Of a stretch of 42,354 nucleotides of DNA, positions 11,508-31,663 are shown in pieces (the first letter of the stretch is position 1; each line of letters starts with the position of its first letter). Source of the stretch: an uncultured bacterium. GTDB lineage: Bacteria > Cyanobacteriota > Vampirovibrionia > Gastranaerophilales > Gastranaerophilaceae. The stretch lies in NCBI GenBank assembly GCA_949285255.1, contig CASDXV010000015.1, forward strand, positions 1 through 42,354, read 5' to 3'. The notes below the pieces were generated by a model. The model saw nothing but the letters and a program-made list of their open reading frames with translations. It did not search any database and had not been told where the DNA came from. Both the position numbers and the translations under genes were made by a program.

Positions 11508-11933
11508 ATGAACAATGTCTCAAATAGCAATACACAAACTGCCAATTTATTTGGCAAAGAAGTTAGTGATTGTGCAAAAAAAGGTGCTATGGCAGGTGCA
11601 GGAGTTGGACTTGCTGCAGGTGGCGCTACATATTTATTTGAAAAAAGATTAATTTCTCCGATGACAACAAATAAGGATGAATTTGTTAAGACTGCTACAG
11701 ATAGAGTTGTAAAGATATATGAAGAAAGAGGAATTAAACCAGATGAAAAACTAATGAGTGATTATACCGAGAGAGCAGCTAAAGAGTTTGATAAAATGAT
11801 TAAAATGAGTGATGATGCACTAAAAGAGCTGAAGAAAAATTTGCCAAGCAAAATGCTCGCAGCGGCGGGAGTTTGCGTTGTTGCCGGTGCAGTTATTGGT
11901 TCTATTGTTAATCATTTTAAAAACAAAGATTAG
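11508..11933 (+). CDS. Small membrane protein with N-terminal L-F-G-K motif
   Basis: I start at ATG 11508 because GGAAGGGA lies just upstream; the frame is open 12 codons further but without a ribosome site. The 141-aa product begins with a polar Asn/Ser/Thr-rich leader ending in ANLFGKEV. A Gly/Ala-rich membrane segment (about residues 24-40), a charged helical middle (about 45-115) and a second hydrophobic stretch near the C-terminus (about 117-132) follow. No family is recognised. The leader resembles those of two other genes in this window (14163 and 30227). It is monocistronic with a strong terminator. Confidence 0.75.
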   Translation: MNNVSNSNTQTANLFGKEVSDCAKKGAMAGAGVGLAAGGATYLFEKRLISPMTTNKDEFVKTATDRVVKIYEERGIKPDEKLMSDYTERAAKEFDKMIKMSDDALKELKKNLPSKMLAAAGVCVVAGAVIGSIVNHFKNKD

Positions 11934-11954
11934 TTTTATAAATTTGCAATTTTT

Positions 11955-11987
11955 AAAAAGAACTCTGGTTTTACCAGAGTTCTTTTT
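11955..11987. terminator. Bidirectional terminator overlapping the trmD 3' end
   Basis: AAAAAGAACTCTGGT (11955-11969) and its exact reverse complement (11973-11987) form a 15-bp stem with a TTT loop, with A and T tracts on both sides. The trmD stop codon and its last codons lie inside it. Confidence 0.92.
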
Positions 11988-12696
11988 CATTTTTGATTTT
12001 ATCCTTAACCTTTTCCCACAAATCGGCTCGGCGCTCTTTTGTTCGCTTTATGCGCTCGTTTAGTCGATACTTTTCAATTTCCTGATGATTACCGTTTAAA
12101 AGTACATCAGGCACCCTCATCCCCCTGTATTCGCGAGGCTTTGTATACTGAGGGTGCTCTAAAAGCCCTTTTAATCCTTCTGAAAAACTATCGTCGACAG
12201 CGGATTCGTCTTTGCCCAAAAATCCGTGCAAATGTCTTGAAACACTATCTATAATGCACAGTGCGCCTAATTCTCCGCCCGTTAGAACATAATCACCCAA
12301 AGATATCTCTCTTGGTTTTAAACCTGTGCGTATTCTCTCGTCAAAACCCTCGTATCTTCCGCACAAAAGTATAATTTGACTTTTTTGAGAGAGCTCTTTG
12401 CTTATTTTTTGATTATAAGGCTCGCCCTGCGGAGTGAGCATAATAAACTCACTATCAGGGAGTTTTTCTATACTTTCATAAGCTTCAAAAACAGGCGGCG
12501 CCATCATTACCATACCTGCGGAGCCTCCGTATGGTGTGTCGTCCACTCTTCTGTGTTTATCATGGGTAAAATCGCGCGGGTTTGTTGTTTTTAGCACTAT
12601 TATGTTATTTTTTATGCCTCTGCCTAAAAGTGCACAAGAGCAGTAACCCTCAATTATTTCAGGAAAAAGAGTAATGACATCAAACCTTAATCCCAC
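11971..12696 (-). CDS. trmD: tRNA (guanine-37 N1)-methyltransferase TrmD
   Basis: TrmD adds the m1G37 methyl group next to the anticodon and prevents +1 frameshifting. The 241-aa protein starts with GTG (12694-12696) and shows RFDVITLFPE, the trefoil-knot SAM site (LLCGRYEGFDERI, EISLGDYVLTGGE) and LEHPQYTKPREYRGMRVPDVLL. The start overlaps the end of rimM by 10 bases, implying translational coupling. The usual partners rpsP and rplS are not adjacent. The last codons are built into the shared terminator stem. Confidence 0.97.
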   Translation of the reverse strand: MGLRFDVITLFPEIIEGYCSCALLGRGIKNNIIVLKTTNPRDFTHDKHRRVDDTPYGGSAGMVMMAPPVFEAYESIEKLPDSEFIMLTPQGEPYNQKISKELSQKSQIILLCGRYEGFDERIRTGLKPREISLGDYVLTGGELGALCIIDSVSRHLHGFLGKDESAVDDSFSEGLKGLLEHPQYTKPREYRGMRVPDVLLNGNHQEIEKYRLNERIKRTKERRADLWEKVKDKIKNEKELW

Positions 12697-13193
12697 GGCA
12701 GCAGCCCCTCTATGGGTTTTATAATGATTTTTTTGCCTTTTATATCAACAATCGGCACAAGTTCTTTTACAAAAGGAATTAAGATATTTCCGTATTTATC
12801 ATCTTGCGGCTTGATTGATAAAATATCGTTGCCTGTGCTTTTTGCAATAGAGTCAACCGTTCCTATTAAATCGTCCTTATCATCAAACACATTTAGCCCG
12901 ACTAAGTCACCTATCAGGTATTCTTCCTCTTCAAGCGTATTTTGAACCTCTTTTTTTTCAAGGTAGATATTTTCTCCCTTAAAGTTCAAAAGCTCATTTA
13001 TATCTGAAATTTCCTTAAATTTTATTATGGCAAAGTTTTTGTGAAATCTAAGTTTTTCTATTGTAAGTTGGGTGTTTTTTACAATAACTTTTTTTAGATT
13101 TTTAAGTCGTTGAGCGTCGCTAAAGCCCACTTTGGCTTCGCCCATAATGCCGTGGAAATTAAGTATTTTACCTATTGAGATTAAGTCTTTCAT
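12687..13193 (-). CDS. rimM: 16S rRNA processing protein RimM
   Basis: RimM binds ribosomal protein S19 and helps mature the 30S head. I start at ATG 13193, giving a 168-aa protein beginning MKDLISIGKILNFHGIMGE, which matches the family start. A TTG six codons upstream is possible but lies at the edge of a strong -10 box. A PRC-barrel half is seen toward the C-terminus (LIGDLVGLNVFD, GNILIPFVKELVPIVD, IEGLLPWD). There is no Shine-Dalgarno site before the ATG, and the promoter predicts a leaderless transcript. Confidence 0.93.
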   Translation of the reverse strand: MKDLISIGKILNFHGIMGEAKVGFSDAQRLKNLKKVIVKNTQLTIEKLRFHKNFAIIKFKEISDINELLNFKGENIYLEKKEVQNTLEEEEYLIGDLVGLNVFDDKDDLIGTVDSIAKSTGNDILSIKPQDDKYGNILIPFVKELVPIVDIKGKKIIIKPIEGLLPWD

Positions 13194-13199
13194 AGAAAA

Positions 13200-13208
13200 A
13201 TTATAGCA
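13200..13208 (-). promoter_or_regulatory. rimM-trmD promoter, extended -10, leaderless
   Basis: On the minus strand TGCTATAAT is a consensus extended -10. Six bases separate it from the rimM ATG, which puts the predicted transcription start on the A of the start codon. Confidence 0.6.
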
Positions 13209-13347
13209 CAAACAAAAACCCTGCTAGTAACATCGGGTAATATGTCATTGTTAAATTTACCCTTTTGGGTAATGCCCGAAAATAAAATATTGTTTTAGTA
13301 TTTTTTCATCGGAATGGAAATATTTTTATAAGGAAAGGTTAGGGACT

Positions 13348-14105: not shown

Positions 14106-14114
14106 GCAAAAAAA

Positions 14115-14162: not shown

Positions 14163-14741
14163 ATGCAAATAAGTAAAATCAACTCTCAGCCTGCTTTTGG
14201 TAAAAGATTAGTTGCAAATTGTCAAATAGTAGATAGAAATTCTAAAGAAAAACAAAATGCATCAATATATGAACTTAACACAAGGGATGTCAGAGACAGA
14301 GAATTTATTGAAAATAATGGCTGGTTTCCAAGCACGGTAATCGGTTTTTTCAGAGATTTTGACAAATATAGAAATTATAGAACTTATAATGCGCTTGTTA
14401 ACAATGAAACAGGGGAAATAGTCGGTATGTCCGCTACAACTAACCATTACAAGGGAGATTCCGTGAATATCCCGGGAACTTCTGTTTGCATAGATTCTAT
14501 AAGCTTAAAAAACGGCGATGGTGATAATGTTGAAGAAATTCTCGTAGCAAAAAGTGTTAACGATGCTTTTGGAAGACATTACCAGAGTGTTACCGCTTCA
14601 ACTTCGGCCTTAGATAAACCAAAACTTAAAAAAGCAAGCTTTTCTGAAACCAAAAACGGCGACTGGGTTATGCCCGAGCATAGAATGGAAGCTTCGATAA
14701 AAAGAGCTCAGAAAAAATGCGCAATTGAATTTTTAGTTTAA
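14163..14741 (+). CDS. Unknown protein with N-terminal P-A-F-G-K motif
   Basis: A 192-aa protein of unrecognised family. It begins MQISKINSQPAFGKR, a short polar leader followed by F-G-K like two other proteins in this window. The middle (about residues 75-170) has an acyltransferase-like look: NNETGEIVGMSATT, DSISLKNGDGDNVEEILV and VNDAFGRHYQSVTASTSA resemble the strand and helix order of GNAT enzymes, but no acetyl-CoA loop is clear. Two Cys are seen (SVCIDS, KKCAIEF) plus one near residue 20. It has AGGAA as ribosome site and a possible sigma-28 promoter. Its stop directly abuts the convergent typA stop. Confidence 0.7.
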   Translation: MQISKINSQPAFGKRLVANCQIVDRNSKEKQNASIYELNTRDVRDREFIENNGWFPSTVIGFFRDFDKYRNYRTYNALVNNETGEIVGMSATTNHYKGDSVNIPGTSVCIDSISLKNGDGDNVEEILVAKSVNDAFGRHYQSVTASTSALDKPKLKKASFSETKNGDWVMPEHRMEASIKRAQKKCAIEFLV

Positions 14742-20294: not shown

Positions 20295-20567
20295 ATGAAC
20301 AAAGAAGAATTAGTAAAAACAGTTGCAGAAAAAGCTAAACTTTCTCAAAAACAAACAGCAGAAGTTGTAGCTTCTATTCTTGAAACAGTACAAAAAACAG
20401 TTGCTAAAGGCAAAAAAGTTACTTTAGTAGGTTTTGGTACTTTTGAAGCTAGAAAAAGAGCAGCAAGAACAGGTCGCAACCCTCAAACAGGTAAAGAAAT
20501 CAAAATCGCTGCTAAAACAGTTCCTGCTTTCTCTGCAGGTAAAAAATTCAAAGAACTTGTTAAATAA
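20295..20567 (+). CDS. hup: HU-family nucleoid protein
   Basis: A 90-aa HU protein that binds and bends DNA as a dimer and compacts the nucleoid. It shows the full pattern: MNKEELVKTVAEKAKLSQKQ, a VTLVGFGTFEARKRAARTGR strand, the NPQTGKEIKI arm with the intercalating proline, and VPAFSAGKKFKELVK at the end. A GGGG-type ribosome site, a near-consensus promoter and a strong terminator flank it, as expected for a highly expressed single gene. Confidence 0.98.
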   Translation: MNKEELVKTVAEKAKLSQKQTAEVVASILETVQKTVAKGKKVTLVGFGTFEARKRAARTGRNPQTGKEIKIAAKTVPAFSAGKKFKELVK

Positions 20568-20586
20568 GTGTTGAATTAAATGTTTT

Positions 20587-20628
20587 AAAAAGCCGGCATT
20601 TGAGTTAATTCTTTGATGTCGGCTTTTT
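20587..20628 (+). terminator. HU gene terminator
   Basis: AAAAAGCCGGCAT (20587-20599) pairs with ATGTCGGCTTTTT (20616-20628) with one G-T wobble, ending in a T run. Confidence 0.85.
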
Positions 20629-20633
20629 GACTT

Positions 20634-20661
20634 TTGCAAATGTGCATATTTATGCTAAAAT
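20634..20661 (+). promoter_or_regulatory. infC promoter
   Basis: TTGCAA (20634-20639) and TAAAAT (20656-20661) are 16 bases apart, with TG one base before the -10 box (extended -10). It lies 31 bases before the AUU start. Confidence 0.6.
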
Positions 20662-20692
20662 TACTAAGTTACAATAATAAGGAGATAAAACA

Positions 20693-21223
20693 ATTAACAA
20701 AGAAATCAAAGCTCAAAAAGAATTAGTCAATGAAAGAATAAGAGCAAAGGAAGTAAGACTCATTGACGACGAGGGTGTTAACCATGGTCTTGTTGCCACA
20801 AGTAAAGCGCTTGATATGGCAAAAGAAAAAGATTTAGACTTAGTTGTTGTTTCTCCAAACCAATCTCCTCCGGTTGCAAAAATTATGGACTGGGGCAAGT
20901 ATAAATACGAAACGGAAAAACGTGCAAAAGAAGCACGCAAAAAGCAGCATACAGTTGATATTAAAGAAGTTAAAATGCGCTATAAAATTGACACTCACGA
21001 CTATGAAGTTCGTCTAAAAAGCGCTAAAAAGTTTTTAGCATCAGGTAATAAAGTAAAAGTTGTCGTTATGCTAAGAGGCCGTGAGATGCAGCACAATAAG
21101 CTGGCTCTTGACCTTGCAAATAAATTTTTAGGTGATTTTGAAGAAGGAACATACGCTCTTGAAAAAGCTCCGGCATTAGAGGGCAGAAACGTAGTTATGG
21201 TTCTTGCTCCAAACGGAAAATAA
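20693..21223 (+). CDS. infC: Translation initiation factor IF-3, AUU start
   Basis: IF-3 keeps the 30S subunit free and rejects wrong start codons. The frame begins at ATT 20693-20695, eight bases after AAGGAG (20679-20684), and gives a 176-aa protein. Its N-terminal domain continues without a break: KELVNERIRAKEVRLID, then GLVATSKALDMAKEKDLDLV and SPPVAKIMDWGKYKYE, followed by the linker and C-terminal domain (VVMLRGREMQHNKLALDL). The first in-frame ATG (20816) would delete 41 residues that match the family. AUU is the start used by E. coli infC for self-control, since IF-3 discriminates against it. rpmI and rplT, the usual next genes, are absent. Confidence 0.95.
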   Translation: MNKEIKAQKELVNERIRAKEVRLIDDEGVNHGLVATSKALDMAKEKDLDLVVVSPNQSPPVAKIMDWGKYKYETEKRAKEARKKQHTVDIKEVKMRYKIDTHDYEVRLKSAKKFLASGNKVKVVVMLRGREMQHNKLALDLANKFLGDFEEGTYALEKAPALEGRNVVMVLAPNGK

Positions 21224-21231
21224 AATATAAA

Positions 21232-21261
21232 GAAAAAAGCCTCTCGCTTGGGCAAAAGGCT
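21232..21261 (-). terminator. Flagellar operon terminator
   Basis: Read on the minus strand, AGCCTTTTGC pairs with GCGAGAGGCT around a CCAA tetraloop (21238-21261) using two G-U wobbles, and runs into TTTTTTC. On the plus strand the wobbles become A-C mismatches, so it is strand-specific and serves the flgL end of the operon. Confidence 0.8.
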
Positions 21262-21289
21262 ATAAAATGGTAAGTTTATATTTTATTAA

Positions 21290-22204
21290 TTAAATGTAGT
21301 TTAAAAGCGATGCTTGCTGCATAATTGAAGCACCCGCCTGAAGTGAAGCTTGAAGAGCTGTTTGATACATCATAAGCTGAGTTGTGGCTTCAGCTATGTC
21401 TGTATCTACAAGGTTTGATTTCATCTCGGTTAAACTAAGTGAGGCGTTTTCATTTATGTTGCTTGTAGCATCCAGTCTTTGAACTCTGCTTGATAGAGTT
21501 GATTGTACATCTGTTATATTTTTAATTCCTGCTTGAATCGGGTCAAGACAAGCGCTGATTGCTTTTATATCCATATCGGGATTAGCAAGTGCATCGTTTA
21601 ATTCTTTAAGAGTGGCAAATATTCCGCCGTTTTCATCACCTAAAATCTGCTCGCCATTGACATTAAGAGGCATTGTAACGCCTTCTGATATTTCAATGTT
21701 TCTTTCCCAGTTTCCGTCTTGTTTTGTGCCCGAGTATGTGACATTTAAGTCATCATCAAGGCTATAAGGAACGGTTGATGTGTTAGTGCCTGCAAATATG
21801 TATTTATCCTGATATTTTGTATTTGCAAGTTGAGCTATTGTTCTTGTTCTTTGCTCAACTTCATCTCTTATAGCATTTAAGCTGTCTTCAGAGTTAAAAG
21901 AGTTAGCAGCCTGCATTGTAAGTTCGTTTATTCTCTGCAAGTTTTCCTGAATTAGGCCCAAAGTGTCGTAAGACTGGTTAATTTCATCTTTTGCGGTTTC
22001 TATATTTTTTGACCAATCATCAATTTGAGAAAGCTGCTTGTTGTACTTCATAACTTTTGTACCGTCAGAGGGGTTTTGTCCTACTGAGGTAAGTTTTTTG
22101 CCTGAAGTTATTTGCTCGTATGTTGAGTAGATATTTGACAGATTTTTGTTCATATTTGTCAACATCAGATTAGAAGACATTTGAGTTGTAATTCTTATAC
22201 TCAT
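21290..22204 (-). CDS. flgL: Flagellar hook-filament junction protein FlgL (HAP3)
   Basis: FlgL joins the hook to the filament and sits between FlgK and flagellin. The 304-aa protein has flagellin-like terminal helices: MSIRITTQMSSNLMLTNMNK with YEQITSGKKLTSVGQNPSDG at the N-terminus, and VDTDIAEATTQLMMYQTALQ with ASIMQQASLLNYI at the end. The middle has a KYQDKYIFAGTNT segment typical of FlgL. It is the last gene of the operon, 16 bases after flgK, and is followed by the strand-specific terminator. Confidence 0.95.
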   Translation of the reverse strand: MSIRITTQMSSNLMLTNMNKNLSNIYSTYEQITSGKKLTSVGQNPSDGTKVMKYNKQLSQIDDWSKNIETAKDEINQSYDTLGLIQENLQRINELTMQAANSFNSEDSLNAIRDEVEQRTRTIAQLANTKYQDKYIFAGTNTSTVPYSLDDDLNVTYSGTKQDGNWERNIEISEGVTMPLNVNGEQILGDENGGIFATLKELNDALANPDMDIKAISACLDPIQAGIKNITDVQSTLSSRVQRLDATSNINENASLSLTEMKSNLVDTDIAEATTQLMMYQTALQASLQAGASIMQQASLLNYI

Positions 22205-22220
22205 AGTGTTTTATTCCTTT

Positions 22221-23762
22221 TTATTCACCGAGTGCCACAAGAACCTGATAGATTTCATTTGCTACGTTAAATATCCTTGCTGAGGCTTCATAGCCTCTTT
22301 GGTATTTAATCATATCCGCAAGTTCTTCATCCAGATTTACACCTGTAATGCTTTGATAATTTGTATTTTCGGATTGATTTATGGCATCTGCGGTTTCAAA
22401 TTTCCCTGCGATATCGCTTTGTTGAAGTCCTACTTCTCCGCTGAAGTAGGTTAAAAATCCCTCAAAAGTTACATTATTATCACCGCCAAAAGTGCTCATG
22501 GTGTTTTTATCTCTTAATTGTGCGGTTGCAACAATGTTGTCCGAGTTTCCTACATTATGCTCCCAGCCGTCAACTGATGTGTCAACTCGAGCTGTTGCTA
22601 TAAGGTTTGGATTATCTATAACATTTTGATTAACGCTTATACTTCCTGCAGTTATAGGGTTGCCAAGGTTAAATATAGGCTCTGTTGACGGTACTAAAAT
22701 CTGCTCACCTGTAACAGGGTCGGTACCTAATGCCATAGCTTGGATATCTCCGTCAACAAAAGTTTGGACATTGTTCACTTCTGTTGCAAAAGTATTTGCC
22801 ATTTCATCGATTTTGCTTCTCATGCCGCTTATTGTTATAAGGCCGTCATCAGATGTGTTTACTATATCAAGAATGGCACCTATTTGTCCGCCTTCTACTT
22901 CATTGTTGGCGTTTTCTATGATAACCGTACCTTCCATATTCTCAACTCTTATTATAGCCGGCGTGTCTGCATCTCCTGCAACGGCATTTAGTTTAAGCTG
23001 CTGCTCTGCACCCGATACAAGTTTTATATCTCCTACTTTTAAATCAACACTTCCGTTTTTGTTGTATTCGATGTTTAAGTCCATAAAAGATGAAAGGTCT
23101 TTGAGGAGATTTTCTCTTTCGCTTATAAGACTTGTACTTGCGCCTTCGCCTTGTATAACAATTTGTTTGTTAATGTCAGCAAGACGTTCAAGACCGTTAT
23201 TGAAGTCTTGTATGCTCATATAAATATCGCTGCTCTCTATAGTTGCAGGCTGCTGCCAGTTGCCTACAAGCTGTTCTTGAAGTTTATCTAAAGAGCTGCC
23301 TATTGAGTTGAACTTGAAAGCTACATTTTGTGCACTTTCTATATAAATTCTTCTTGCAGAGGGGTCTGTGGGGTTAGCACTTAGATTTTGTGCAGCTGAG
23401 AAAAAGTCCTTAAAGCTTGCTTGAAGCCCTTCTTCTCCAAGTTCGTCAGTAATTGAGCTCAACTGGTCCATAATTGTACCAAGAGTGTAATAATACTGTG
23501 CGTTTGAATTAGCACCTCTTAGACTGTTAGCTGCAGCGTTATTAGCGTAGCTTGTAATTTTGGCTATGCTTGCACCGTTTAGCCCTCTTATTTGACTATA
23601 TACATTATCACCGCCAAATGTAGGATTTGTCTGAAAGTCCGCACGTAATTTTATGTAGCCGTCTACATTCATATTCGCAAGGTTTTGAGACACGACGGCA
23701 AGCGCGTGCTGATAGTTGTTCATGGACTCTCTGCTAATATTCATTGTTTGATTTATCGTCAT
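22221..23762 (-). CDS. flgK: Flagellar hook-filament junction protein FlgK (HAP1)
   Basis: FlgK is the first junction protein at the hook tip. The 513-aa length fits. The N-terminus has the axial-protein helix YQHALAVVSQNLANMNVDGY. The domain with LGEEGLQASFKDFFSAAQNL and LSANPTDPSARRIYIESAQN is FlgK-specific. The C-terminus has the paired helix TGVNLDEELADMIKYQRGYE and IFNVANEIYQVLVALGE. It lies between the FlgN-like chaperone and flgL, the normal order. Confidence 0.96.
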   Translation of the reverse strand: MTINQTMNISRESMNNYQHALAVVSQNLANMNVDGYIKLRADFQTNPTFGGDNVYSQIRGLNGASIAKITSYANNAAANSLRGANSNAQYYYTLGTIMDQLSSITDELGEEGLQASFKDFFSAAQNLSANPTDPSARRIYIESAQNVAFKFNSIGSSLDKLQEQLVGNWQQPATIESSDIYMSIQDFNNGLERLADINKQIVIQGEGASTSLISERENLLKDLSSFMDLNIEYNKNGSVDLKVGDIKLVSGAEQQLKLNAVAGDADTPAIIRVENMEGTVIIENANNEVEGGQIGAILDIVNTSDDGLITISGMRSKIDEMANTFATEVNNVQTFVDGDIQAMALGTDPVTGEQILVPSTEPIFNLGNPITAGSISVNQNVIDNPNLIATARVDTSVDGWEHNVGNSDNIVATAQLRDKNTMSTFGGDNNVTFEGFLTYFSGEVGLQQSDIAGKFETADAINQSENTNYQSITGVNLDEELADMIKYQRGYEASARIFNVANEIYQVLVALGE

Positions 23763-23781
23763 TTAAAACTCCTTTGACGCC

Positions 23782-24183
23782 TTAGGCTTCTTCCGTGATT
23801 GAAGAAATATCAAGTGTGCTGTCTTGATTTTTCTTGCCCAAATGATTATAGTCTGCATTTTTTGCAGACGATATGTTTAAAATTCCCTCAAAAATTTTAT
23901 TTATAACATTTAGGGAGTGAGTAATTAATACTTCGTTATCTTTTTGAAGTTTGTTAATTCTCTCGGTTATCTCATTTAGCTCTTTTTTTTGCGATTGGTT
24001 GAGTTCAAATTCGTCTTTTTTCTCATAAATCGCTTTTATTTCATCATAAGCACAGATTAGCTTTTCATCACAACTTGCAAGCATCTCAAGGTTTTTTTCA
24101 ATGAGTGCTTTTTGCTTATCTTCAAGCAGTGTTTTTATATTTATGTATATTTCTTTTATTTTTTCAAAAGTTATACCGCTCAT
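23782..24183 (-). CDS. flgN: FlgN-like flagellar export chaperone
   Basis: FlgN-type chaperones bind FlgK and FlgL and deliver them to the flagellar export gate. The 133-aa protein is mostly long charged helices (residues about 5-110): FEKIKEIYINIKTLLEDKQK, LEMLASCDEKLICAYDEIKA and ELNEITERINKLQKDNEVL. Sequence conservation is weak in this family, so the call leans on helical pattern, size and its position directly before flgK. Confidence 0.75.
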   Translation of the reverse strand: MSGITFEKIKEIYINIKTLLEDKQKALIEKNLEMLASCDEKLICAYDEIKAIYEKKDEFELNQSQKKELNEITERINKLQKDNEVLITHSLNVINKIFEGILNISSAKNADYNHLGKKNQDSTLDISSITEEA

Positions 24184-24191
24184 TTTTCTCT

Positions 24192-24476
24192 CTATGCGCT
24201 ATAGTCCGCAAGTACACTTCTTCCGTAGGTAAGACCGTATTTAATGTCATCGTCTGTTATATCTTCGCCGATTAATTTTGCAGAGTTTTTGATGTCTTCT
24301 ACATCGACATTTTTAAACAAATCATTTTGAATAAGTTTAATATCATCTTCTTTTGTGTCGGTATTTTGCACTTCTTTAGGCGTTAAGTTTTGTGTGTTTT
24401 TTATCGCATAGTTATAAAATATGCGATTAATAGCCTGAGAATCCGCTATTTGATTTGTGTTCATTGAAATTGTCAT
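24192..24476 (-). CDS. 94-aa protein between flgJ and flgN, FlgM-position
   Basis: A small acidic protein with no signal peptide. A low-complexity N-terminus (about residues 1-45) precedes two helices and the conserved-looking end ITDDDIKYGLTYGRSVLADYSA. The slot between flgJ and flgN is where many genomes place flgM, the anti-sigma-28 factor, and the layout (disordered N-terminus, helical C-terminus) fits. However, the FlgM C-terminal signature is not evident, so I do not name it. It could be a flagellar accessory specific to this lineage. Confidence 0.6.
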   Translation of the reverse strand: MTISMNTNQIADSQAINRIFYNYAIKNTQNLTPKEVQNTDTKEDDIKLIQNDLFKNVDVEDIKNSAKLIGEDITDDDIKYGLTYGRSVLADYSA

Positions 24477-24477
24477 A

Positions 24478-24855
24478 TTAACCTAAAATATCCTTTGTAG
24501 TTATATTTTCATCCGGAAGAGTTTTTTCCATTTGTTGATAGAGTTGTTTTGCAAAGCCGATGTTTGATGTAGGCGAGTTTGCAACATCTCTGCCTATTTG
24601 ATTGAAAAGTATGGATTTAAAGTTGTCCATGTATTTTGAATCGCCAAACATCGAGTTTTCTCTGTCAACGGTTTTGTCCATTTGTGTGAGCATTTTTGAA
24701 ACAAGGATTGCCTCAAATTCTTTTGCAACTTTTTTTAACTGCTCTTTTTGCGTGCCTGATGACCTTATGGTGTTAACTACATCATAATCCGCGCCTTGTG
24801 AGTAGTTTGTTATTGTATTTGTTTGTAGTGAATAAAAATTGTCGCTCATTGTCAT
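24478..24855 (-). CDS. flgJ: FlgJ rod-binding domain protein (no muramidase domain)
   Basis: The rod-binding N-terminal half of FlgJ, which caps and assembles the rod in the periplasm. The 125-aa protein has LKKVAKEFEAILVSKMLTQM, SMFGDSKYMDNFKSILFNQI and GFAKQLYQQMEKTL, all typical of the domain. The C-terminal muramidase domain found in enterobacterial FlgJ (about 310 aa) is absent. A separate lytic transglycosylase heads this same operon and probably supplies that activity. One base separates it from flgI upstream and from the 94-aa gene downstream. Confidence 0.9.
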   Translation of the reverse strand: MTMSDNFYSLQTNTITNYSQGADYDVVNTIRSSGTQKEQLKKVAKEFEAILVSKMLTQMDKTVDRENSMFGDSKYMDNFKSILFNQIGRDVANSPTSNIGFAKQLYQQMEKTLPDENITTKDILG

Positions 24856-24856
24856 C

Positions 24857-25981
24857 CTAAATTATTTGTAGTTCTGCTTGCAGGCTGCCCGACATTCTGA
24901 GTGCCTGAAGTATAGCTATTAAGTCTGTAGGAGTTACCCCTATCGAATTAAGAGCATTTACAAGCTCGCCCAAAGTCGAGTTTGCTTTCATCTCAACCAA
25001 GCTGCCCTCTTTCTTTTCTATATCAATTTGTGCGTTTGTAACACCTACTGTTTGACCTTGCGGTGAGAAAGGTGCAGGTTGAGATACGTCATTGTATGCT
25101 TGAATTGTAACGGTAATACCGCCGTGGGCTACTGCTGCAGGCATAAGTCTGGCGTCCGCTCCTATTACAACAGTGCCTGTTCTCTCGTTTATTATTACTT
25201 TTGCTCTTTCTTGAGGGGCGCTTACTCTTATGTTTTCAAGTATTGAAATAAAAGCAATTCTGTCCGTTAAATATCTCTGAGGGATGCTGACTTTTATACT
25301 GCCGCCGTCAAGTGCAATGGCGTCTGATACGTTTCTTGAAATTATATTTGCAATTTGAGCTGCCATAGTGTAGTCAGCTTGGTCTAAGATTAATGTCAGA
25401 GAGTTTTCATCTCCTATAGCGCTTATGATATCTCTTTCAACAATAGCGCCGCCCGGGATTCTGCCTGTTGTTGTAATTGCCGTTCTTGAACTTGAACCGG
25501 CTGCTTTTGCGCTTGCACCTCCGACTGAGAGCGGGCCTTGTGCCACGGCTACAATTTCTCCGTTTGGAGCTCTCAGTTGAGTTTGAACAAGAACTCCGCC
25601 CTCAAGGCTTTTGGCGTCTGCCATAGCTGAAACAACAACATCTACCTTATCGCCGTTTTTTGCAAAAGGAGGAATGGTGGCGGTGACAATAACAGCGGCG
25701 GAAGCACCTTTTTGAATGTAGTTTGATTGGTCAATTACAGTGCCTAAATTTTGCAGTAAGAGCTGGTTTGTCATTTGTGTGTGACGAGAGTTGTCACCTG
25801 TGTTTTGTAAACCTACAACAAGACCGTAACCTACAACTTGGTTTTCTCTAACACCTTTGATGTGGGTTATATCTTTAATTCTTACGCTCTGTCCGCTTAT
25901 TGCGCTTGCAATTCCCGTTTGGAATAGGCATATCGCAAGTATTAATGCTGTCAGAATAATTTTTTTAAACACTGTTGTCAT
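24857..25981 (-). CDS. flgI: Flagellar P-ring protein FlgI
   Basis: FlgI forms the P ring around the rod in the peptidoglycan layer. The 374-aa protein has a signal peptide (cleavage near AICLFQTGIASA), then RIKDITHIKGVRENQVVGYG, LVVGLQNTGDNS, GALRLM-like SAMADAKSLEGGVLVQTQL and GTVVIGADARLMPAAVAHGG. The end has STLGELVNALNSIGVTPTDL and LQALRMSGSLQAELQII, as in the family. The presence of FlgI and FlgH shows the cell has both a wall and an outer membrane. Confidence 0.97.
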   Translation of the reverse strand: MTTVFKKIILTALILAICLFQTGIASAISGQSVRIKDITHIKGVRENQVVGYGLVVGLQNTGDNSRHTQMTNQLLLQNLGTVIDQSNYIQKGASAAVIVTATIPPFAKNGDKVDVVVSAMADAKSLEGGVLVQTQLRAPNGEIVAVAQGPLSVGGASAKAAGSSSRTAITTTGRIPGGAIVERDIISAIGDENSLTLILDQADYTMAAQIANIISRNVSDAIALDGGSIKVSIPQRYLTDRIAFISILENIRVSAPQERAKVIINERTGTVVIGADARLMPAAVAHGGITVTIQAYNDVSQPAPFSPQGQTVGVTNAQIDIEKKEGSLVEMKANSTLGELVNALNSIGVTPTDLIAILQALRMSGSLQAELQII

Positions 25982-25992
25982 CCTTTTTAAAA

Positions 25993-26607
25993 TTAGAATA
26001 TATATCTCATGAAACGATAGAGTATACCTTCGTTTTGACCTCTTGATACCGTTCCTGCTCCGCTCATTGCAAATTGCAGGTTGGCAACTTGAGTTGAGCT
26101 TATTTCACCCTGCTGGTCAATCCATCTTGGGTCAACAACCCCTGATACCAGAAGGTCTACACGCTCGTTTGCGTTAACAAGGGTCTTTTTGCCCTGTACA
26201 AGAAGGTTTCCGTTGGGTAAAAGTTGTATAACCTGTACTGCAACCCTGTCTTGTATTCCAAGGCGTCTTTGAGTGCTTGTGCTGCCTGAAACGGAGATTG
26301 TTCCGTTTGTATTGTTAAGAGCACCCTTTAGATTTGTTTTAAATATTGTATTTAGCGCACCTGTCAGGTTTTCAAGAATGCTTGAGGTTTTCTCTGTTTC
26401 ATAAACGCCTGAATCCGTAAGCGTGGGTACTTCATCGATTACAATTGTCACAAGGTCTCCGACATTTCTTGCCCTTACTGAACTATAAAGAGGTCTTGGC
26501 TCAATAAAGCTTGATTGAGTTGCATTCAGCGAAAAAAGACTCTCAGCATTTGCCTGTGGGAGCAAAAATGTCATTAAACATATTGTGAGTGCTAACTTTT
26601 TTATCAT
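25993..26607 (-). CDS. flgH: Flagellar L-ring protein FlgH, apparently not a lipoprotein
   Basis: FlgH forms the L ring in the outer membrane. The 204-aa protein matches in PLYSSVRARNVGDLVTIVIDE, in the NGNLLVQGKKTLVNANE region and in VSGVVDPRWIDQQGEISSTQ with VANLQFAMSGAG. Its N-terminus is a signal peptide cleaved near QANA-ES. There is no Cys at the cleavage site; the only nearby Cys is residue 10 inside the hydrophobic core (LTIC). Most FlgH are lipoproteins with an N-terminal Cys, so anchoring may differ here. Confidence 0.93.
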   Translation of the reverse strand: MIKKLALTICLMTFLLPQANAESLFSLNATQSSFIEPRPLYSSVRARNVGDLVTIVIDEVPTLTDSGVYETEKTSSILENLTGALNTIFKTNLKGALNNTNGTISVSGSTSTQRRLGIQDRVAVQVIQLLPNGNLLVQGKKTLVNANERVDLLVSGVVDPRWIDQQGEISSTQVANLQFAMSGAGTVSRGQNEGILYRFMRYIF

Positions 26608-26619
26608 CCTTTTATCCTT

Positions 26620-27342
26620 TTAGATTTTCACGGTCACTTCGTTTTTGTTGCTTACTGTTGCTTGATAGATTTTATTGTATTTTAGGCTTTTAACCTGTAT
26701 GTTATCCCCTATACTCCCTTCTTTAAGGGCTTTTCCGTCGACTGTTATTTTTAGATTGTCATTTGATTTAAAAATAATGTTTATTGTCGAATCTTTAAGT
26801 ACATCGGGTTTTGATTTTACGTAGTTTTTTAAGATTGGAGAACCTTTTGGAACATTTCTTGTCGCTACAAGCTCTCTTTTTGGGTATTTATCAATTGTTT
26901 GTCCCAAGTATTGTCCGATTTGCATTTTTTGAACACTTGAGTTAGAAACGCTTATTGCCTGTTCTCTAACGATAGGGTTTGTTGCGCATAAGACTTCTTT
27001 GTATACAAGGGTATTAACGCTTATAGGGAAAGACTTTATAAAGGTTTTTCCGTCATATATGCTTACTCTTTTTATGTCACGGCTTAAAAAACCGTTTGTA
27101 TTTGATTCTACTTTAATTTCAACCTTGTCTTTTGCAGTTATTTCTCCTTGAGGCATATTTAAAATTCTTACCTTAATTTCACCTCCGCCTAAGCTGTCAA
27201 CTTGTTTTTGGGCTTGTTTTGTTATTTTCTCAATTATTGCAGCCCTAAATTCTTCTTCACTTAGGGTTTGCGCGCTGCAAACCGTGCATATCAGAAGCAG
27301 AGAAAAAAGTACTGTTAAGATTTTAGTTAGTTTGTTTTTCAT
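26620..27342 (-). CDS. flgA: Flagellar P-ring assembly chaperone FlgA
   Basis: FlgA is a periplasmic chaperone for P-ring (FlgI) assembly. The 240-aa protein has a signal peptide (LFSLLLICTVCSA) and the SAF domain near the C-terminus: ATRNVPKGSPILKNYVKSKP, then STINIIFKSNDNLKITVDGK and NIQVKSLKYNKIYQATVSN. Its place between flgG and flgH agrees. It is two bases after flgG and 12 bases before flgH. Confidence 0.9.
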   Translation of the reverse strand: MKNKLTKILTVLFSLLLICTVCSAQTLSEEEFRAAIIEKITKQAQKQVDSLGGGEIKVRILNMPQGEITAKDKVEIKVESNTNGFLSRDIKRVSIYDGKTFIKSFPISVNTLVYKEVLCATNPIVREQAISVSNSSVQKMQIGQYLGQTIDKYPKRELVATRNVPKGSPILKNYVKSKPDVLKDSTINIIFKSNDNLKITVDGKALKEGSIGDNIQVKSLKYNKIYQATVSNKNEVTVKI

Positions 27343-27344
27343 TT

Positions 27345-28130
27345 TTATTGAAGATTATTTGTTACCTGTAAAATATTTGAAGCTGAAGTAATGATTTTTG
27401 AATTAGATTCAAAAGCGCGTTCTGCTTTAATTAGAGCAATCATTTCTTCTACCGTTTGTACGTTTGAACCCTCAACAAAGTATTGTTGAATTGTTCCGTA
27501 TCCGTCTTGTCCTGCAATACCCGGTACAGGTACGCCTGAAGCGGGTGTTTCAAGGTAGAGGTTGTGTCCTGCCGCTGCAAGTCCTGAGTTGTTTTGGAAT
27601 TTTACGATTTGTAACTGTCCTACCTGAGTTTGCTCGATTTGGTTGCCGACTTTAACAGATACCATACCTTGAGGAGTGATTGTAATTTCTTTTGTGTTTT
27701 GAGGAATTTGAATAGGAGGCATAAGTTGATAACCATCTGTTGTGGTCAGTGTTCCGTTAGCATCCATTTTAAAAGAGCCGTCACGGGTGTAGGCTATTGT
27801 ACCGTCATCAAGAGTAATTTGAAAAAATCCATCCCCCTCAATTGCAACATCCAGGTTTCTGCCTGTTGATTGCATAATACCTGTAGTAAAAATTCTTGAT
27901 GTAGCGGCTGTTTTTACACCAAGACCTATTTCAACACCGACAGGCTGGTATGTGCCCTGTCCCATTTGAGCACCTGCGGCGCGCTCTGTTTGATAGATTA
28001 AATCCTGAAATTCTGCACGCACTTTTTTGTAACCGTAAGTGTTGACGTTTGCCATGTTGTTGGCTATAACATCAAGATTGGTTTGTTGTGCAATCATACC
28101 TGTTGCTGCTGTGTGTAGTGATCTTAGCAT
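27345..28130 (-). CDS. flgG: Flagellar distal rod protein FlgG
   Basis: FlgG builds the distal rod. The 261-aa length matches the family. Signatures: MLRSLHTAATGMIAQQTNLD with VIANNMANVNTYGYKKVRAE at the N-terminus, GDGFFQITLDDGTIAYTRDG in the middle, and SNVQTVEEMIALIKAERAFE with KIITSASNILQVTNNL at the C-terminus. It follows flgF by 18 bases. Confidence 0.97.
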   Translation of the reverse strand: MLRSLHTAATGMIAQQTNLDVIANNMANVNTYGYKKVRAEFQDLIYQTERAAGAQMGQGTYQPVGVEIGLGVKTAATSRIFTTGIMQSTGRNLDVAIEGDGFFQITLDDGTIAYTRDGSFKMDANGTLTTTDGYQLMPPIQIPQNTKEITITPQGMVSVKVGNQIEQTQVGQLQIVKFQNNSGLAAAGHNLYLETPASGVPVPGIAGQDGYGTIQQYFVEGSNVQTVEEMIALIKAERAFESNSKIITSASNILQVTNNLQ

Positions 28131-28148
28131 TTTATTTCCTCAAATTCC

Positions 28149-29024
28149 TTATCCTCTTATAACTCCCAAATCAATTGCTTTTGATACGGTGTCGCCTTGT
28201 GTTTTAACTATCTTTGCCATCGCTTCATATGAGCGGGTGACTGTAATTGTATTTATCATTTCATAAATAGTATTTGTATTTGAACTTTCAAGAAATCCCT
28301 GTTGTAGCGCTGCCCTGTTGTTGTTCTGATACATTCCGGCGTCTACTCCCTCGGGTTGTACAAATTTCCCTTCGCCCTGAGCTGAGATTTTTGTTTTATC
28401 TGTAAAATCAACGATTTGTATCTGCTGCAGAGTTCTCGGGTTGTCGGGGTTTGTAATTTGAATAACCCCTCTTTCTCCTATATCAATATCTTTAAGAGAA
28501 TCTATTCTGTTGTTTGGATTGTTTTCTTCATCTTCAGGATTAAGGACTATTCTTATTCTTCTGTTTCTGGTGTCCATAACCCAGTCACCCTCTTTTGTAA
28601 CAAGGTAATAATCATCGGTTAATTGAAAATTACCGGCGCGGGTGTAGTAGTAATCTGCTTCGTTGTATTGAACATTATCAGGAACTTCCTGATGTCTGAT
28701 TTTAAAGAAACCGTCCCCTTGAATACCTACATCAAGCTTGTTACCTGTTGTTATAAGCCCGCCTTGAGAAAAGTCTATATATGTTCTATCAGCTGCGTTT
28801 CCAAGGCTAAGGTAGCCCACTTTCATAAATTGTGTATCTTTTGGGTTGTTTGTTATTGGAATTTGTTTTACTTCAACTTGCGCGTCCATAAGGTTTTTAA
28901 AAGTTATATTTGTCTTTTTAAAACCTACGGTATTTACGTTAGCAAGGTTGTTTGCGTTAACATCTTCTTGCTTTAGAAGTGACATCATGCCTTTTGTAGC
29001 GGATTCAAGCCCTCTTGTTATCAT
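28149..29024 (-). CDS. flgF: Flagellar proximal rod protein FlgF
   Basis: FlgF is a proximal rod subunit. The 291-aa protein has the axial-protein start MITRGLESATKGMMSLLKQE with NANNLANVNTVGFKKTNITF, a central GDGFFKIRHQEV and YTRAGNFQLTDDYYLVT, and the C-terminal NTIYEMINTITVTRSYEAMA. It is longer than E. coli FlgF (251 aa), with an inserted charged segment around DEENNPNNRIDSLKDI. The start overlaps the transglycosylase stop by four bases (ATGA), with AAGGAGG upstream. Confidence 0.93.
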   Translation of the reverse strand: MITRGLESATKGMMSLLKQEDVNANNLANVNTVGFKKTNITFKNLMDAQVEVKQIPITNNPKDTQFMKVGYLSLGNAADRTYIDFSQGGLITTGNKLDVGIQGDGFFKIRHQEVPDNVQYNEADYYYTRAGNFQLTDDYYLVTKEGDWVMDTRNRRIRIVLNPEDEENNPNNRIDSLKDIDIGERGVIQITNPDNPRTLQQIQIVDFTDKTKISAQGEGKFVQPEGVDAGMYQNNNRAALQQGFLESSNTNTIYEMINTITVTRSYEAMAKIVKTQGDTVSKAIDLGVIRG

Positions 29025-29617
29025 ATTTTTCCTCCTTTCATAGCTTCATAGGAGGATAAAATATTTTTAACATAGTTTTGAGTTTCTCTGTATGGCGGGA
29101 TATCTCCGTATTTTTGAACTGCTGCAGGGCCGGCGTTATACGCGGCAAGTGCGAGTTTAGGGTCGTTGTTAAAACGATTCATCATACTTTTTAAATACCT
29201 TGTGCCGCCGTCAATATTTTGCTCGGGGTCAAAAGCATCAATGACACCAAGCCCTTTTGCGGTTTGAGGCATAAGCTGCATAAGCCCCATAGCGCCGCAT
29301 TTTGATTTAGCGTCAGGGTTAAAGCCTGATTCTTGTTTAACTACGGCCTTTATAAAATCAGGGTCGAGGTTGTTTTTTTGAGCGTATTTATTTATTAAAT
29401 TTTCTATGTCTTCTCTTGAATTTTTAAATGTAGTTTTCTCAACCGTTTCTTTTTTCTCGCCCATTTTTTCATCAAGAATGGCTTTAAACTCTTTTGCAGC
29501 AGATTTATCGGGCACAGAAATACTATCATCCGTACCTAAAATGCGGTTGAAATTATTTTCAATCGAACTTAACCTTCTTAAAGTCAAGTCAAGACCTGTT
29601 ATTAAGCCCTCACTCAT
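29021..29617 (-). CDS. Lytic transglycosylase (SLT domain), flagellar operon leader
   Basis: A peptidoglycan lytic transglycosylase of 198 aa. The SLT domain (about residues 72-195) has the catalytic Glu at E96 in VVKQESGFNP, then GAMGLMQLMPQTAKGLGV, NIDGGTRYLKSMMNRF and LALAAYNAGPAAVQKYGDIP. The first 70 residues are helical and lack a signal peptide. As FlgJ also lacks one and travels through the flagellar export gate, the same route is likely here. It heads the operon, and it probably replaces the missing muramidase half of FlgJ to let the rod pass the wall. Confidence 0.9.
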   Translation of the reverse strand: MSEGLITGLDLTLRRLSSIENNFNRILGTDDSISVPDKSAAKEFKAILDEKMGEKKETVEKTTFKNSREDIENLINKYAQKNNLDPDFIKAVVKQESGFNPDAKSKCGAMGLMQLMPQTAKGLGVIDAFDPEQNIDGGTRYLKSMMNRFNNDPKLALAAYNAGPAAVQKYGDIPPYRETQNYVKNILSSYEAMKGGKI

Positions 29618-29640
29618 TTTATATAAACCTACCTCTTACC

Positions 29641-29664
29641 ATTTTATAAGTGTTAAATCACTTA
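29641..29664 (-). promoter_or_regulatory. Flagellar operon promoter with overlapping palindrome
   Basis: On the minus strand a TATAAAAT -10 region (29641-29648) lies 24 bases before the transglycosylase start. TAAGTG-N6-CACTTA, an exact inverted repeat (29647-29664), overlaps its upstream edge, and TTGTAA sits as a -35 with a short 15-base gap. This is a likely repressor or activator site. Confidence 0.5.
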
Positions 29665-29765
29665 CAATATAAATATACCCTCACTCTATTTGTGTTCTCA
29701 TCAATCATACGGTGTAATTTTTTCTAAAAATTAAATCTTTAGATTGATTTTTTATTATTTATAAA

Positions 29766-29791
29766 AAAATCGGCTTTTTTGAGCCGATTTT
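29766..29791 (-). terminator. Terminator of the 80-aa gene
   Basis: AAAATCGGCT (29766-29775) pairs with AGCCGATTTT (29782-29791), and a T run follows on the minus side. It overlaps the stop codon of the 80-aa gene. Confidence 0.82.
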
Positions 29792-30032
29792 ATTCAAAAA
29801 CTTTAGATATAAAACAAATCGCATCCAAGAATGTTTCTTTTACAAATTCCTTTGCAAGTTTATCCAGCGGTTTATTATCAATATGTTCAAAAGCAAGGTT
29901 AATAGGGTCTTTTGTTCTTCTAAACGATGGTACAATACTTCTTGAATCCATATAATCAAGTTTTGATTTGAGGTCTTTTGTGTCTTTAAATATACAAACT
30001 TGTTCTTCTACATCAAATATGGTTGCACTCAT
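29790..30032 (-). CDS. Small protein of unknown function
   Basis: An 80-aa protein, mildly acidic, without a signal peptide. It begins MSATIFDVEEQVCIF and ends in a helical LAKEFVKETFLDAICFISKV. An AGAGGAAAA ribosome site precedes its ATG. It lies just upstream of the flagellar operon but ends in its own terminator, so it is a separate transcript. I recognise no family. Confidence 0.6.
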   Translation of the reverse strand: MSATIFDVEEQVCIFKDTKDLKSKLDYMDSRSIVPSFRRTKDPINLAFEHIDNKPLDKLAKEFVKETFLDAICFISKVFE

Positions 30033-30147
30033 CTTTTTTCCTCTTATTAAGTATATCGTATTTATATAAAAAATATATTCTTAAAAAAATTGCCTTTTTG
30101 AAAAAAATTTGGTTAAATTTTGTTAACAAATAAAAATATTTTATTTA

Positions 30148-30162
30148 ATTACCTTGGGTAAT
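30148..30162. promoter_or_regulatory. ATTACC-TTG-GGTAAT palindrome upstream of 478-aa gene
   Basis: An exact 6-bp inverted repeat with a 3-base spacer lies 65 bases before the ATG at 30227. A related TTACCC/GGGTAA repeat, also followed by ATG, lies upstream of the response-regulator gene (13257-13272). The rest of 30033-30226 is AT-rich with only a weak promoter-like TATAAA at 30209-30214. Confidence 0.35.
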
Positions 30163-30226
30163 GGCAAATTTTTTTATTTTCATGTTTTATGTTTGTAGTG
30201 TTGTTTAGTATAAACAGGGTTAGTAA

Positions 30227-31663
30227 ATGAAAGTAAGTGCAATTAGTGGCGGATATAATTCTCTAAGCTTCGGCAGGGCTCTAAAGCCAGATGAGATGGA
30301 GCAGGCATATGAGAGTGCTAAAAATGTTAGAGTGTTAATGGGGTTTAAAGAAGGCAAGGGGGTTTTATATATTCCATCAGAAAAAATACCCGAGCCTACA
30401 GCTGAAAACTCTGCAAAAGAAAGTATAAGCCGATTTTTTGAAATGGCAAAAAAACTTTTCGGCATAAATACAGTTGAAATTTCTCCTGAAGTTACAGGGG
30501 GCAATAAGTCCGTAGTTGATGAAGCACTTAGTACTCAAGGAATTAAAAGAGTTGCAAAATTTGATTTTCAAACAGAAAACCTTGAAGAAGCAATTGAAAA
30601 TGCTGCAAAAACTTATGACGGTCTTAGGGTGGTTAATCCTCATCAGTATTCTGAAGAACAGCTAAATCTGTTTGCTGAGATTTTTCAAAAAGTTAAGGGT
30701 GAGTCTTTTGACCCTAAACTTCTTATGTTTCAGGTAGATGACGCAGGAGGTGTATATGATTGGGATGCAGGCAAAGTTTTTGGAAAATTTCAGGGTAAAA
30801 ATATAATAGGTTCAAGTAACTACATTAACGATAACGGTGGTAACTTATGGGGCTCTACAAGTTTTTATACCGATAGGATGCATTTGCCTCAGGGTGATTT
30901 TACCCATGGTGTAAGAAAAGCAGGAGAGCCATCTTTAGCTCAGCAAATAAAAGACCTTGGTCAGGTAAATCAATCAATACATCTTATAGAAAAAGATTTA
31001 AGACTTCAGGATGAAGATTTTATTCATCCTGCCAGATACGCGGCTGCAAAGCGTGGTGAAGTTGCTTTATCACAAAACTTTTATAAGCATTTTGATGATT
31101 TAACACCTGAAATTGCAACTGATATAATGGGTTTTGAAAAAGCTTATCAGGAAGCGCTTGAAAAAGGCCTTGGCGATAACTATTTTGACTCTCTTGCAAA
31201 AGCTATGAAAGCTCGCGGTCTAAACGAGGGTGATGGCGCTCAGTTGTATGAGCAAATTTGTAAATACAGAAATGCCCTTTATTCTTCAGGTGAAGATGCG
31301 CCAAAGACTATTAAAGATGCCCTTAAATTAACAGCAGAGCAGATTGAAGCTTCGTATAAAGATACCAAAAACGTAGCTCTGCAAGGTTTTGAGGTAAGAC
31401 AAAGAGATATTCAAATACAACTTGAAGAAGCTGCAAGAAAGAAAGAAGTGGCCGAAGCGTTAGAAAGTCTTAACCCGCTTAATCAGCATTTCTTTGATAA
31501 GGCAATTAATTTTGCAAGAGAAAATAAGAAAGCTCTTATATTCACAGGGGCAATTGCAGCTATAGCTGCTGTTGGCGGCACAATGTATTCTTACGGTAAG
31601 GAAATTGCAACAAAATCTAAAGCCGTAACTCCAAAATCTGAAAGATTAGATAAAAAAGCTTAG
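30227..31663 (+). CDS. Large unknown protein with N-terminal L-S-F-G-R motif
   Basis: A 478-aa protein of unrecognised family. It begins MKVSAISGGYNSLSFGRALK, closely parallel to the MQISKIN...AFGKR leader of the gene at 14163. The body (about residues 80-270) mixes strands and helices, with a compact Asp/Gly-rich block QVDDAGGVYDWDAGKVFGKF. A long charged helical region (about 340-430) leads to one membrane segment (about 446-466: ALIFTGAIAAIAAVGG) and a short basic tail. This suggests a protein anchored by its C-terminus. Its 3' end overlaps the convergent prepilin peptidase gene by 18 bases. Start choice is mildly uncertain because the ribosome site (CAGGG) is weak. Confidence 0.75.
   Translation: MKVSAISGGYNSLSFGRALKPDEMEQAYESAKNVRVLMGFKEGKGVLYIPSEKIPEPTAENSAKESISRFFEMAKKLFGINTVEISPEVTGGNKSVVDEALSTQGIKRVAKFDFQTENLEEAIENAAKTYDGLRVVNPHQYSEEQLNLFAEIFQKVKGESFDPKLLMFQVDDAGGVYDWDAGKVFGKFQGKNIIGSSNYINDNGGNLWGSTSFYTDRMHLPQGDFTHGVRKAGEPSLAQQIKDLGQVNQSIHLIEKDLRLQDEDFIHPARYAAAKRGEVALSQNFYKHFDDLTPEIATDIMGFEKAYQEALEKGLGDNYFDSLAKAMKARGLNEGDGAQLYEQICKYRNALYSSGEDAPKTIKDALKLTAEQIEASYKDTKNVALQGFEVRQRDIQIQLEEAARKKEVAEALESLNPLNQHFFDKAINFARENKKALIFTGAIAAIAAVGGTMYSYGKEIATKSKAVTPKSERLDKKA

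What the first reader, a model, noticed from the sequence alone, without database searches (positions are those of the whole stretch)
11508..31663. Three unrelated proteins share a short polar leader ending in F-G-K/R
The products at 14163 (MQISKINSQPAFGKR), 30227 (MKVSAISGGYNSLSFGR) and 11508 (ANLFGKEV at residues 12-19) begin with 10-15 polar Ser/Asn/Gln-rich residues and then F-G-K or F-G-R. The first two also share M-[QK]-[IV]-S-x-I at the very start. The bodies are unrelated. Two have membrane segments and none has a classical signal peptide. A shared N-terminal tag on different bodies suggests a sorting, processing or docking signal special to this lineage. Its role is inferred; I know of no description.
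Basis: partly seen in the sequence, partly recalled or inferred. Interest (0 to 1): 0.72.

Follow-up and report, generated by a model that had tools for sequence, protein, structure and literature searches.

The report
Shared N-terminal tag on unrelated proteins
In a group of non-photosynthetic gut relatives of cyanobacteria, a number of unrelated proteins begin with the same kind of short floppy tag around a conserved phenylalanine; it may be an address label for a flagellum-like protein-export machine that these bacteria keep even without flagella, but that function is untested.

Summary
The three N-termini exist as described. It is a corner of a wider leader in Candidatus Gastranaerophilales: M-x-[IVL], polar spacer, then [ILV]-[SN]-F-x-[GASKR]; F at residues 7-20 in 34 of 46 curated cases. 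In two-fold cross-validation, one protein per family, core and start co-occur above own-shuffle expectation (5 of 43 against 1.3; 7 of 47 against 1.2). In the 30227 family the F is kept in 20 of 20 genes. Bodies differ: GNAT-like, GH77-derived, phosphoglucomutase, isoamylase, nucleotidase, AvrB-like, ankyrin, mTERF. One strong GH77 copy lacks the tag; six diverged copies read carry it. These genomes also hold a second flagellar-type export system, kept in flagellin-less relatives; tagged genes border some of its genes. I propose export or docking there (about 0.4). Against: a strict regex failed on held-out data, the core does not fit flagellar gate-recognition motifs, own-genome copies of the machine have no clear tagged neighbour, and an untagged GH77 lies near it too. 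Protein 11508 is a doubtful member.

The parts
14163..14207 (+). leader MQISKINSQPAFGKR
   Evidence: F12 and K14 invariant in 3 of 3 aligned sequences; residues 1-12 pLDDT below 50
14163..14741 (+). 192-aa leader protein, GNAT-like acetyltransferase fold
   Evidence: no Pfam hit; best AlphaFold model pLDDT 79.5, the other four 44-51; Foldseek top hits GNAT/HAT enzymes, E from 5e-5
30227..30277 (+). leader MKVSAISGGYNSLSFGR
   Evidence: M1, F15 and R17 among 15 invariant columns of 17 sequences; F kept in the homologues left out of that alignment; residues 1-14 pLDDT below 50
30227..31663 (+). 478-aa leader protein, GH77-derived, catalytic motifs not found, C-terminal hydrophobic segment
   Evidence: homology to L017/L018; L017 matches PF02446; catalytic motifs absent
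11508..11564 (+). doubtful leader MNNVSNSNTQTANLFGKEV
   Evidence: F-G-R in genus homologue L049, no F-G in L050
11508..11933 (+). 141-aa small membrane protein, Gly-zipper-like
   Evidence: below cut-off
21290..29617 (-). flagellar cluster (FlgL/FlgK-like, FlgI, FlgH, FlgA, FlgG, FlgF and others): the genome has flagellar genes besides the second export system
   Evidence: flagellin-N match at 21779-22192; Flg_bbr_C matches at 22236, 27351, 28167; other names read from the sequence

Best explanation
The three N-termini are examples (two good, one doubtful) of an N-terminal leader widespread in Gastranaerophilales: a hydrophobic residue near position 3, a polar, probably disordered spacer, and a core [ILV]-[SN]-F-x-[GASKR], added to unrelated bodies. 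Most likely mechanism: it is an export or docking signal for the second, filament-less flagellar-type (type III) export system that these genomes encode. The unfolded leader would be recognised at the cytoplasmic face of the export gate (C-domain of SctV/FlhA or FlhB, or the free FHIPEP C-domain paralogue) and the body passed to the envelope or gut lumen. Shown: the leader, its conservation in several families, its presence on diverged GH77 copies, the second export system and its retention without flagellin, and adjacency of tagged genes to some of its genes. Inferred: recognition by that system, export, destination.
For: Cross-validated link of start and core. Core kept while bodies diverge. 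Leader of low model confidence, as expected for disorder, in two models. Absent from the strong GH77 of G002 and from L142 of the same body cluster; present on the six diverged GH77 copies read (L017, L018, L115, L171, L179, L182). Second export system: FliP in 20 of 20 chosen genomes; the 13 with flagellin have a long, higher-scoring and a short, lower-scoring copy, the 7 without only the latter. Own second FHIPEP is 79% identical to that of flagellin-less G021 and 38% to high-scoring FHIPEPs of class relatives; own second FlhB is 68-69% identical to those of G021 and G015 and 34% to the own flagellar FlhB. Operons FliE-FliF-x-FliH-FHIPEP and FliO-P-Q-R, each bordered by a tagged gene (L117:9575, L168:16035). 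The diverged GH77 is next to the FHIPEP C-domain gene in 7 of 9 family genomes outside the genus (coordinates); leaders read in 4 of those 7. One tagged protein matches AvrB_AvrC, a type III effector family by recall. Precedent: N-termini of chlamydial glycogen enzymes, including MalQ and a phosphoglucomutase, are read as type III signals in Shigella assays (PMC4829429 passages, PMC9251005 abstract).
Against: No export experiment. The core does not fit the flagellar gate-recognition motif: F+4 is hydrophobic in 15 of 46 against 488 of 1476 controls, and the median F is at residue 15, not 36-40. No curated tag next to own-genome copies in L038, L040 and L029 (flanks partly cut off at 20 kb) or to FlhB in L186 and L187. 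The untagged strong GH77 of the own genome also lies about 0.9 kb after the second FlhB (coordinates), so nearness to the machine is not peculiar to tagged copies. With tags on a few percent of genes, two flank hits could be chance, and the FHIPEP C-domain cluster may be one inherited arrangement. Several tagged bodies look cytosolic (AAA, RelA/SpoT-like, mTERF). A strict regex failed on held-out data. One look-alike (L123:1949) occurs in family f8, where FHIPEP was not found over cut-off. The 30227/GH77 alignment at 16-24% identity is weak, so placing of its F there rests partly on the aligner.
Confidence: 0.4

Rival explanations
1. Intracellular docking tag: the leader, a short strand-like peptide, binds a cytoplasmic scaffold (for instance the free FHIPEP C-domain paralogue or a storage body) and gathers glycan and other enzymes there without export.
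For: Several tagged bodies are glycan or sugar-phosphate enzymes (GH77, isoamylase, phosphoglucomutase, NTP transferase) or look cytosolic; conserved adjacency of a tagged GH77 to a soluble FHIPEP C-domain gene; the core has hydrophobic residues at -2 and 0 between polar ones.
Against: A metallophosphatase/5'-nucleotidase and an AvrB-like body fit export better (inference); no scaffold identified.
Confidence: 0.25
2. Sorting or insertion signal for another route (inner membrane, surface, vesicles), unrelated to type III export.
For: Some tagged proteins have a hydrophobic segment soon after the leader (window 11508, L171:1674, L182:4770, L183:5489; by eye), and the 30227 family ends in one.
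Against: By eye many tagged proteins have no membrane segment; no machinery points to it.
Confidence: 0.15
3. No common function: composition bias of AT-rich polar N-termini plus inheritance within families produces look-alikes.
For: Strict regex 0 of 248 on held-out data against 10 of 1014 internal; a reversed motif also enriched in the genus set, p=0.019; F-to-Y control in excess in the own set, 6/262 vs 16/1556; held-out core >=7 counts near shuffle level when starts are ignored, 15 against 11.5; seeds picked by eye; some cross-validation thresholds not significant.
Against: Own-sequence shuffles and family collapse in cross-validation still give an excess confined to leader-like starts; F kept in 20 of 20 genes of the 30227 family.
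Confidence: 0.15

Closest known systems
Dual export signal of early flagellar subunits (N-terminal hydrophobic residues plus gate-recognition motif; PMC8983047)
   Same: two-part N-terminus with a hydrophobic residue near the start and a downstream short motif; an export gate of the same family is encoded here
Type III signals on chlamydial glycogen enzymes (PMC4829429, PMC9251005)
   Same: N-terminal signals on metabolic enzymes (MalQ, i.e. the GH77 reaction, and phosphoglucomutase); acquired by a housekeeping protein in CT295
   Different: no common linear motif reported in the passages and abstract seen; shown by secretion assays in Shigella, which is lacking here
Incomplete flagellar gene sets of Gastranaerophilales (Soo et al. 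2014, PMC4040986, passages seen)
   Same: partial flagellar gene sets in this order were noticed
   Different: read there as loss of flagella; here the 13 flagellin-bearing genomes hold a second FliP kind, so the set looks like a separate retained system
Microcompartment encapsulation peptides (recalled)
   Same: short N-terminal tag on different enzymes
   Different: those are amphipathic helices (recalled); this core looks strand-like and no shell genes were sought

Membership tests
Early flagellar type III export signal (gate-recognition type) | hydrophobic residues at the extreme N-terminus | tested here: inconclusive
   residue 3 is I/L/V/M in 34 of 46 against 429 of 1742 others, but the set was chosen partly on its start
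Early flagellar type III export signal (gate-recognition type) | gate-recognition motif F-xxx-hydrophobic (pattern recalled), at FlgD residues 36-40 and about 30 or more residues from the start (PMC8983047 passages) | tested here: not met
   F+4 hydrophobic 15 of 46 vs 488 of 1476; median F at residue 15
Type III export substrate | export dependent on the export gate | not testable with these tools
   needs experiment
Non-flagellar (filament-less) type III export system | export gate FliP, FliQ, FliR, FlhB, FHIPEP, separate from the flagellar set | tested here: met
   FliQ and FliR of this system confirmed by Pfam in one genome only (L168)
Non-flagellar (filament-less) type III export system | no flagellin in some carriers | tested here: met
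   7 of 20 genomes lack a PF00669 match; all 7 have Flg_bbr_C rod/hook-type matches
Non-flagellar (filament-less) type III export system | ATPase, secretin, needle or tip | not tested
   not searched
GH77 4-alpha-glucanotransferase (window 30227) | family match and catalytic residues | tested here: not met
   no Pfam match, catalytic motifs absent; relatives L115, L171, L182 meet both, L179 by motifs
GNAT acetyltransferase (window 14163) | GNAT fold | tested here: inconclusive
   fold match on a 3-sequence model, 1 of 5 models confident; no Pfam or NCBIfam match

The most novel reading that the evidence does not exclude
Gastranaerophilales use a second, filament-less flagellar-type export machine, kept in flagellin-less members, whose cargo carries a conserved linear N-terminal motif ([ILV]-[SN]-F-x-[GASKR] after a polar start). 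That would be a sequence-readable type III export code, placed on glycan enzymes and effector-like proteins of gut bacteria.
Probability: 0.33. Interest if true: 0.87.

Novelty: new variant of a known kind. Interest (0 to 1): 0.62.

Why it matters
If the tag is an export signal, the cargo of an overlooked export system in gut bacteria could be read straight from genomes. Type III substrates are said to lack a shared sequence (PMC8983047, introduction), so a conserved core would be a rare handle on how the gate recognises cargo. If it is a docking tag, it points to an unknown intracellular assembly. Either way it marks a set of mostly unannotated proteins.

Tried and rejected
(a) F-G alone and FG[KR]: not consistently enriched. 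(b) Gapped-pattern enrichment: dominated by membrane segments; after their removal FSG and SF.G are among the top patterns beside many others. (c) Strict regex [ILV][STN]F[TSKGRQ][GSA], defined on earlier data, failed on the held-out set, 0 of 248; by eye that set still held leaders of the same kind, so a score matrix was used. (d) F-xxx-hydrophobic gate-recognition pattern: not met. (e) Pair comparison within body families: uninformative. Over 18 partly redundant pairs, leader identity 140/332 and downstream identity 214/540 are alike; the F is kept in 13 of 18, some of these by chance alignment with untagged phosphoglucomutases. (f) Foldseek for 30227: weak TIM-barrel-like hits only. (g) Literature in the held library: 'Gastranaerophilales + N-terminal motif' (none), 'Melainabacteria + hypothetical proteins + N-terminal + signal' (none), 'type III secretion system + Melainabacteria' (two listed, neither on this by title and abstract start), 'Gastranaerophil + type III secretion' (two listed, unrelated by title); some searches gave general lists of which only parts were shown. 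No description found in these searches. (h) Tag sets of 39 and 46 were curated by eye from regex output; of the 39, L056:14857 and L072:19178 were left out of the 46 as family duplicates, and L171:9225, L179:14983 and L182:1751, though on the list of 49, were not in it.
Full report
What was checked.

The wider leader. In stretches of own, genus, family and order genomes, a number of N-termini read M-x-[IVL], polar spacer, then a core with S or N, F, any residue, and G, A, S, K or R. In the first samples [NST]F[KRSTGQ][GA] in non-membrane N-termini was 34 of 882 (own, genus, family) against 67 of 4946 internal segments, p=1e-7; order 4/177 against 11/1008; class relatives with FHIPEP 1/129, class family f8 without it 1/47, same-phylum genomes without it (presumably Cyanobacteriia; unnamed) 1/120. 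These patterns were shaped on the same data, and an F-to-Y control was in excess in the own set (6/262 vs 16/1556). On a fresh family set a strict regex failed outright (0 of 248 against 10 of 1014), and a reversed control was enriched in the genus set. A score matrix from 39 curated examples gave, on that held-out set, core >=7 in 15 of 248 N-termini against 11.5 from shuffles; 4 of 13 with a leader-like start against 11 of 235 others. Two-fold cross-validation with bodies collapsed to 775 families from 1307 N-termini gave, at core >=8 and start >=1, 5 of 43 (1.3 expected from own shuffles; other starts 9 of 308, 6.2 expected; p=0.019) and 7 of 47 (1.2 expected; others 15 of 521, 11.5 expected; p=0.0011). 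Over all nine threshold pairs p runs from 0.0016 to 0.4 in one fold and from 0.00097 to 0.011 in the other. So the two halves go together, but the numbers are small and the seeds were chosen by eye.

Outside the order. Among 129 N-termini of class relatives with FHIPEP, 2 have leader-like starts; both have cores scoring 6.5-6.6 and look like leaders by eye (L148:11906, L156:14770). In f8 one of 47 looks alike (L123:1949, start score 1.5). Among 120 same-phylum N-termini 3 have such starts, none with core >=7. The sample is too small to say where the tag arose.

Conservation. One search found 20 genes of the 30227 family in 19 of 39 genomes (some in two pieces); the F is present in the N-terminus of 20 of 20, as F-G-R in 18, F-R-R in one (L018) and F-G-A in one (L021, by eye). 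An alignment of 17 sequences, 14 from that search and three GH77 relatives, with identity to the window protein from 87% to 16%, has 15 invariant columns, among them M1, F15 and R17; the GH77 relatives read F-R-R, F-Q-R, F-Q-R, and L182 F-E-R. In the 14163 family F12 and K14 are invariant in 3 of 3. 11508 has one homologue with F-G-R and a distant one without.

Bodies. The leaders have low model confidence, as for disorder. 14163 resembles GNAT acetyltransferases, on a three-sequence alignment with one confident model of five. 30227 is related to GH77-like proteins but lacks the catalytic motifs that L115, L171, L179 and L182 keep: there the leader seems to have outlived the enzyme. Of 30 proteins given to Pfam (29 of the 49 listed, plus L017), 11 match a family at E<=0.001: 5'-nucleotidase, AAA, RelA/SpoT (below cut-off), AvrB_AvrC, isoamylase, NTP transferase, phosphoglucomutase, mTERF, GH77 (two) and ankyrin. 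Each of 14 chosen genomes has a strong GH77 (221-240 bits) and at least one weaker match. The strong copy of G002 has no leader, nor has L142 of the same body cluster.

The export system. FHIPEP is over cut-off in 44 of 58 class genomes. FliP is in 20 of 20 chosen genomes, flagellin in 13; the 13 have a long, higher-scoring FliP and a short, lower-scoring one, the 7 only the latter. In the 7, FlhB is single and Flg_bbr_C proteins are present; three f8 genomes have neither. The own second FHIPEP and FlhB resemble those of flagellin-less relatives (79%; 68-69%) far more than high-scoring FHIPEPs of class relatives (38%) or the own flagellar FlhB (34%). Operons: FliE, FliF, an unassigned protein, FliH, FHIPEP; FliO, P, Q, R. 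Soo et al. 2014 (PMC4040986, passages) saw incomplete flagellar sets and read them as loss; paired copies in flagellin-bearing genomes suggest a separate system instead.

Link between the two. A tagged gene borders each of these two operons. A gene for a free FHIPEP C-domain sits directly beside the diverged GH77 in 7 of 9 family genomes outside the genus (not in G021 and G023; coordinates); in the four read, the GH77 is tagged and further neighbours have leader-like starts, though one (L171:8400) lacks the F. Own-genome copies at L038, L040 and L029 have no curated tagged neighbour within the stretch held, and the untagged strong GH77 is near the own second FlhB. The link is suggestive, not proven, and shared ancestry confounds it.

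Mechanism. N-termini of chlamydial glycogen enzymes including MalQ and a phosphoglucomutase act as type III signals in Shigella assays, a parallel to tagged GH77, isoamylase and phosphoglucomutase here. The flagellar dual-signal model (PMC8983047: abstract, introduction and passages) suggested testing the core as a gate-recognition motif, which failed. I therefore put export or docking at that system at about 0.4, with intracellular docking the main rival.

Noticed in passing
L029:12641-14086(+); A free FHIPEP C-terminal domain without the membrane part is encoded in many Gastranaerophilaceae-family genomes searched, often beside a diverged GH77 gene.
   Followed up: partly
G000:C13:18512-19537 and 20484-22109: The own strong GH77 gene follows the second FlhB by about 0.9 kb on the same strand; in L186 and L187 FlhB is followed by a sigma-factor-like gene that in G002 (L051) adjoins the strong GH77.
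   Followed up: no
L107:2600-4435(-): A tagged bacterial protein with an mTERF domain, a family best known from mitochondria and plastids (recalled).
   Followed up: no
L054:7907-8719(-): A tagged protein matching AvrB_AvrC over Pfam's cut-off, over about 75 residues.
   Followed up: no
L173, L174: Arrays of similar, by eye prepilin-like genes (MTVPSLMQNHQRK...).
   Followed up: no
L099:18028, L140:3643, L036:14025: Similar-looking small proteins; L099 and L140 have a D-x-D-x-D-G-like segment.
   Followed up: no
L171:1677-2291(-): A leader followed by what looks by eye like a Sec signal peptide, so possibly two signals in tandem.
   Followed up: no
window 3422-5395(-): Large protein with three SLH-domain stretches (Pfam) and a Cys/Pro-rich part.
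   Followed up: no
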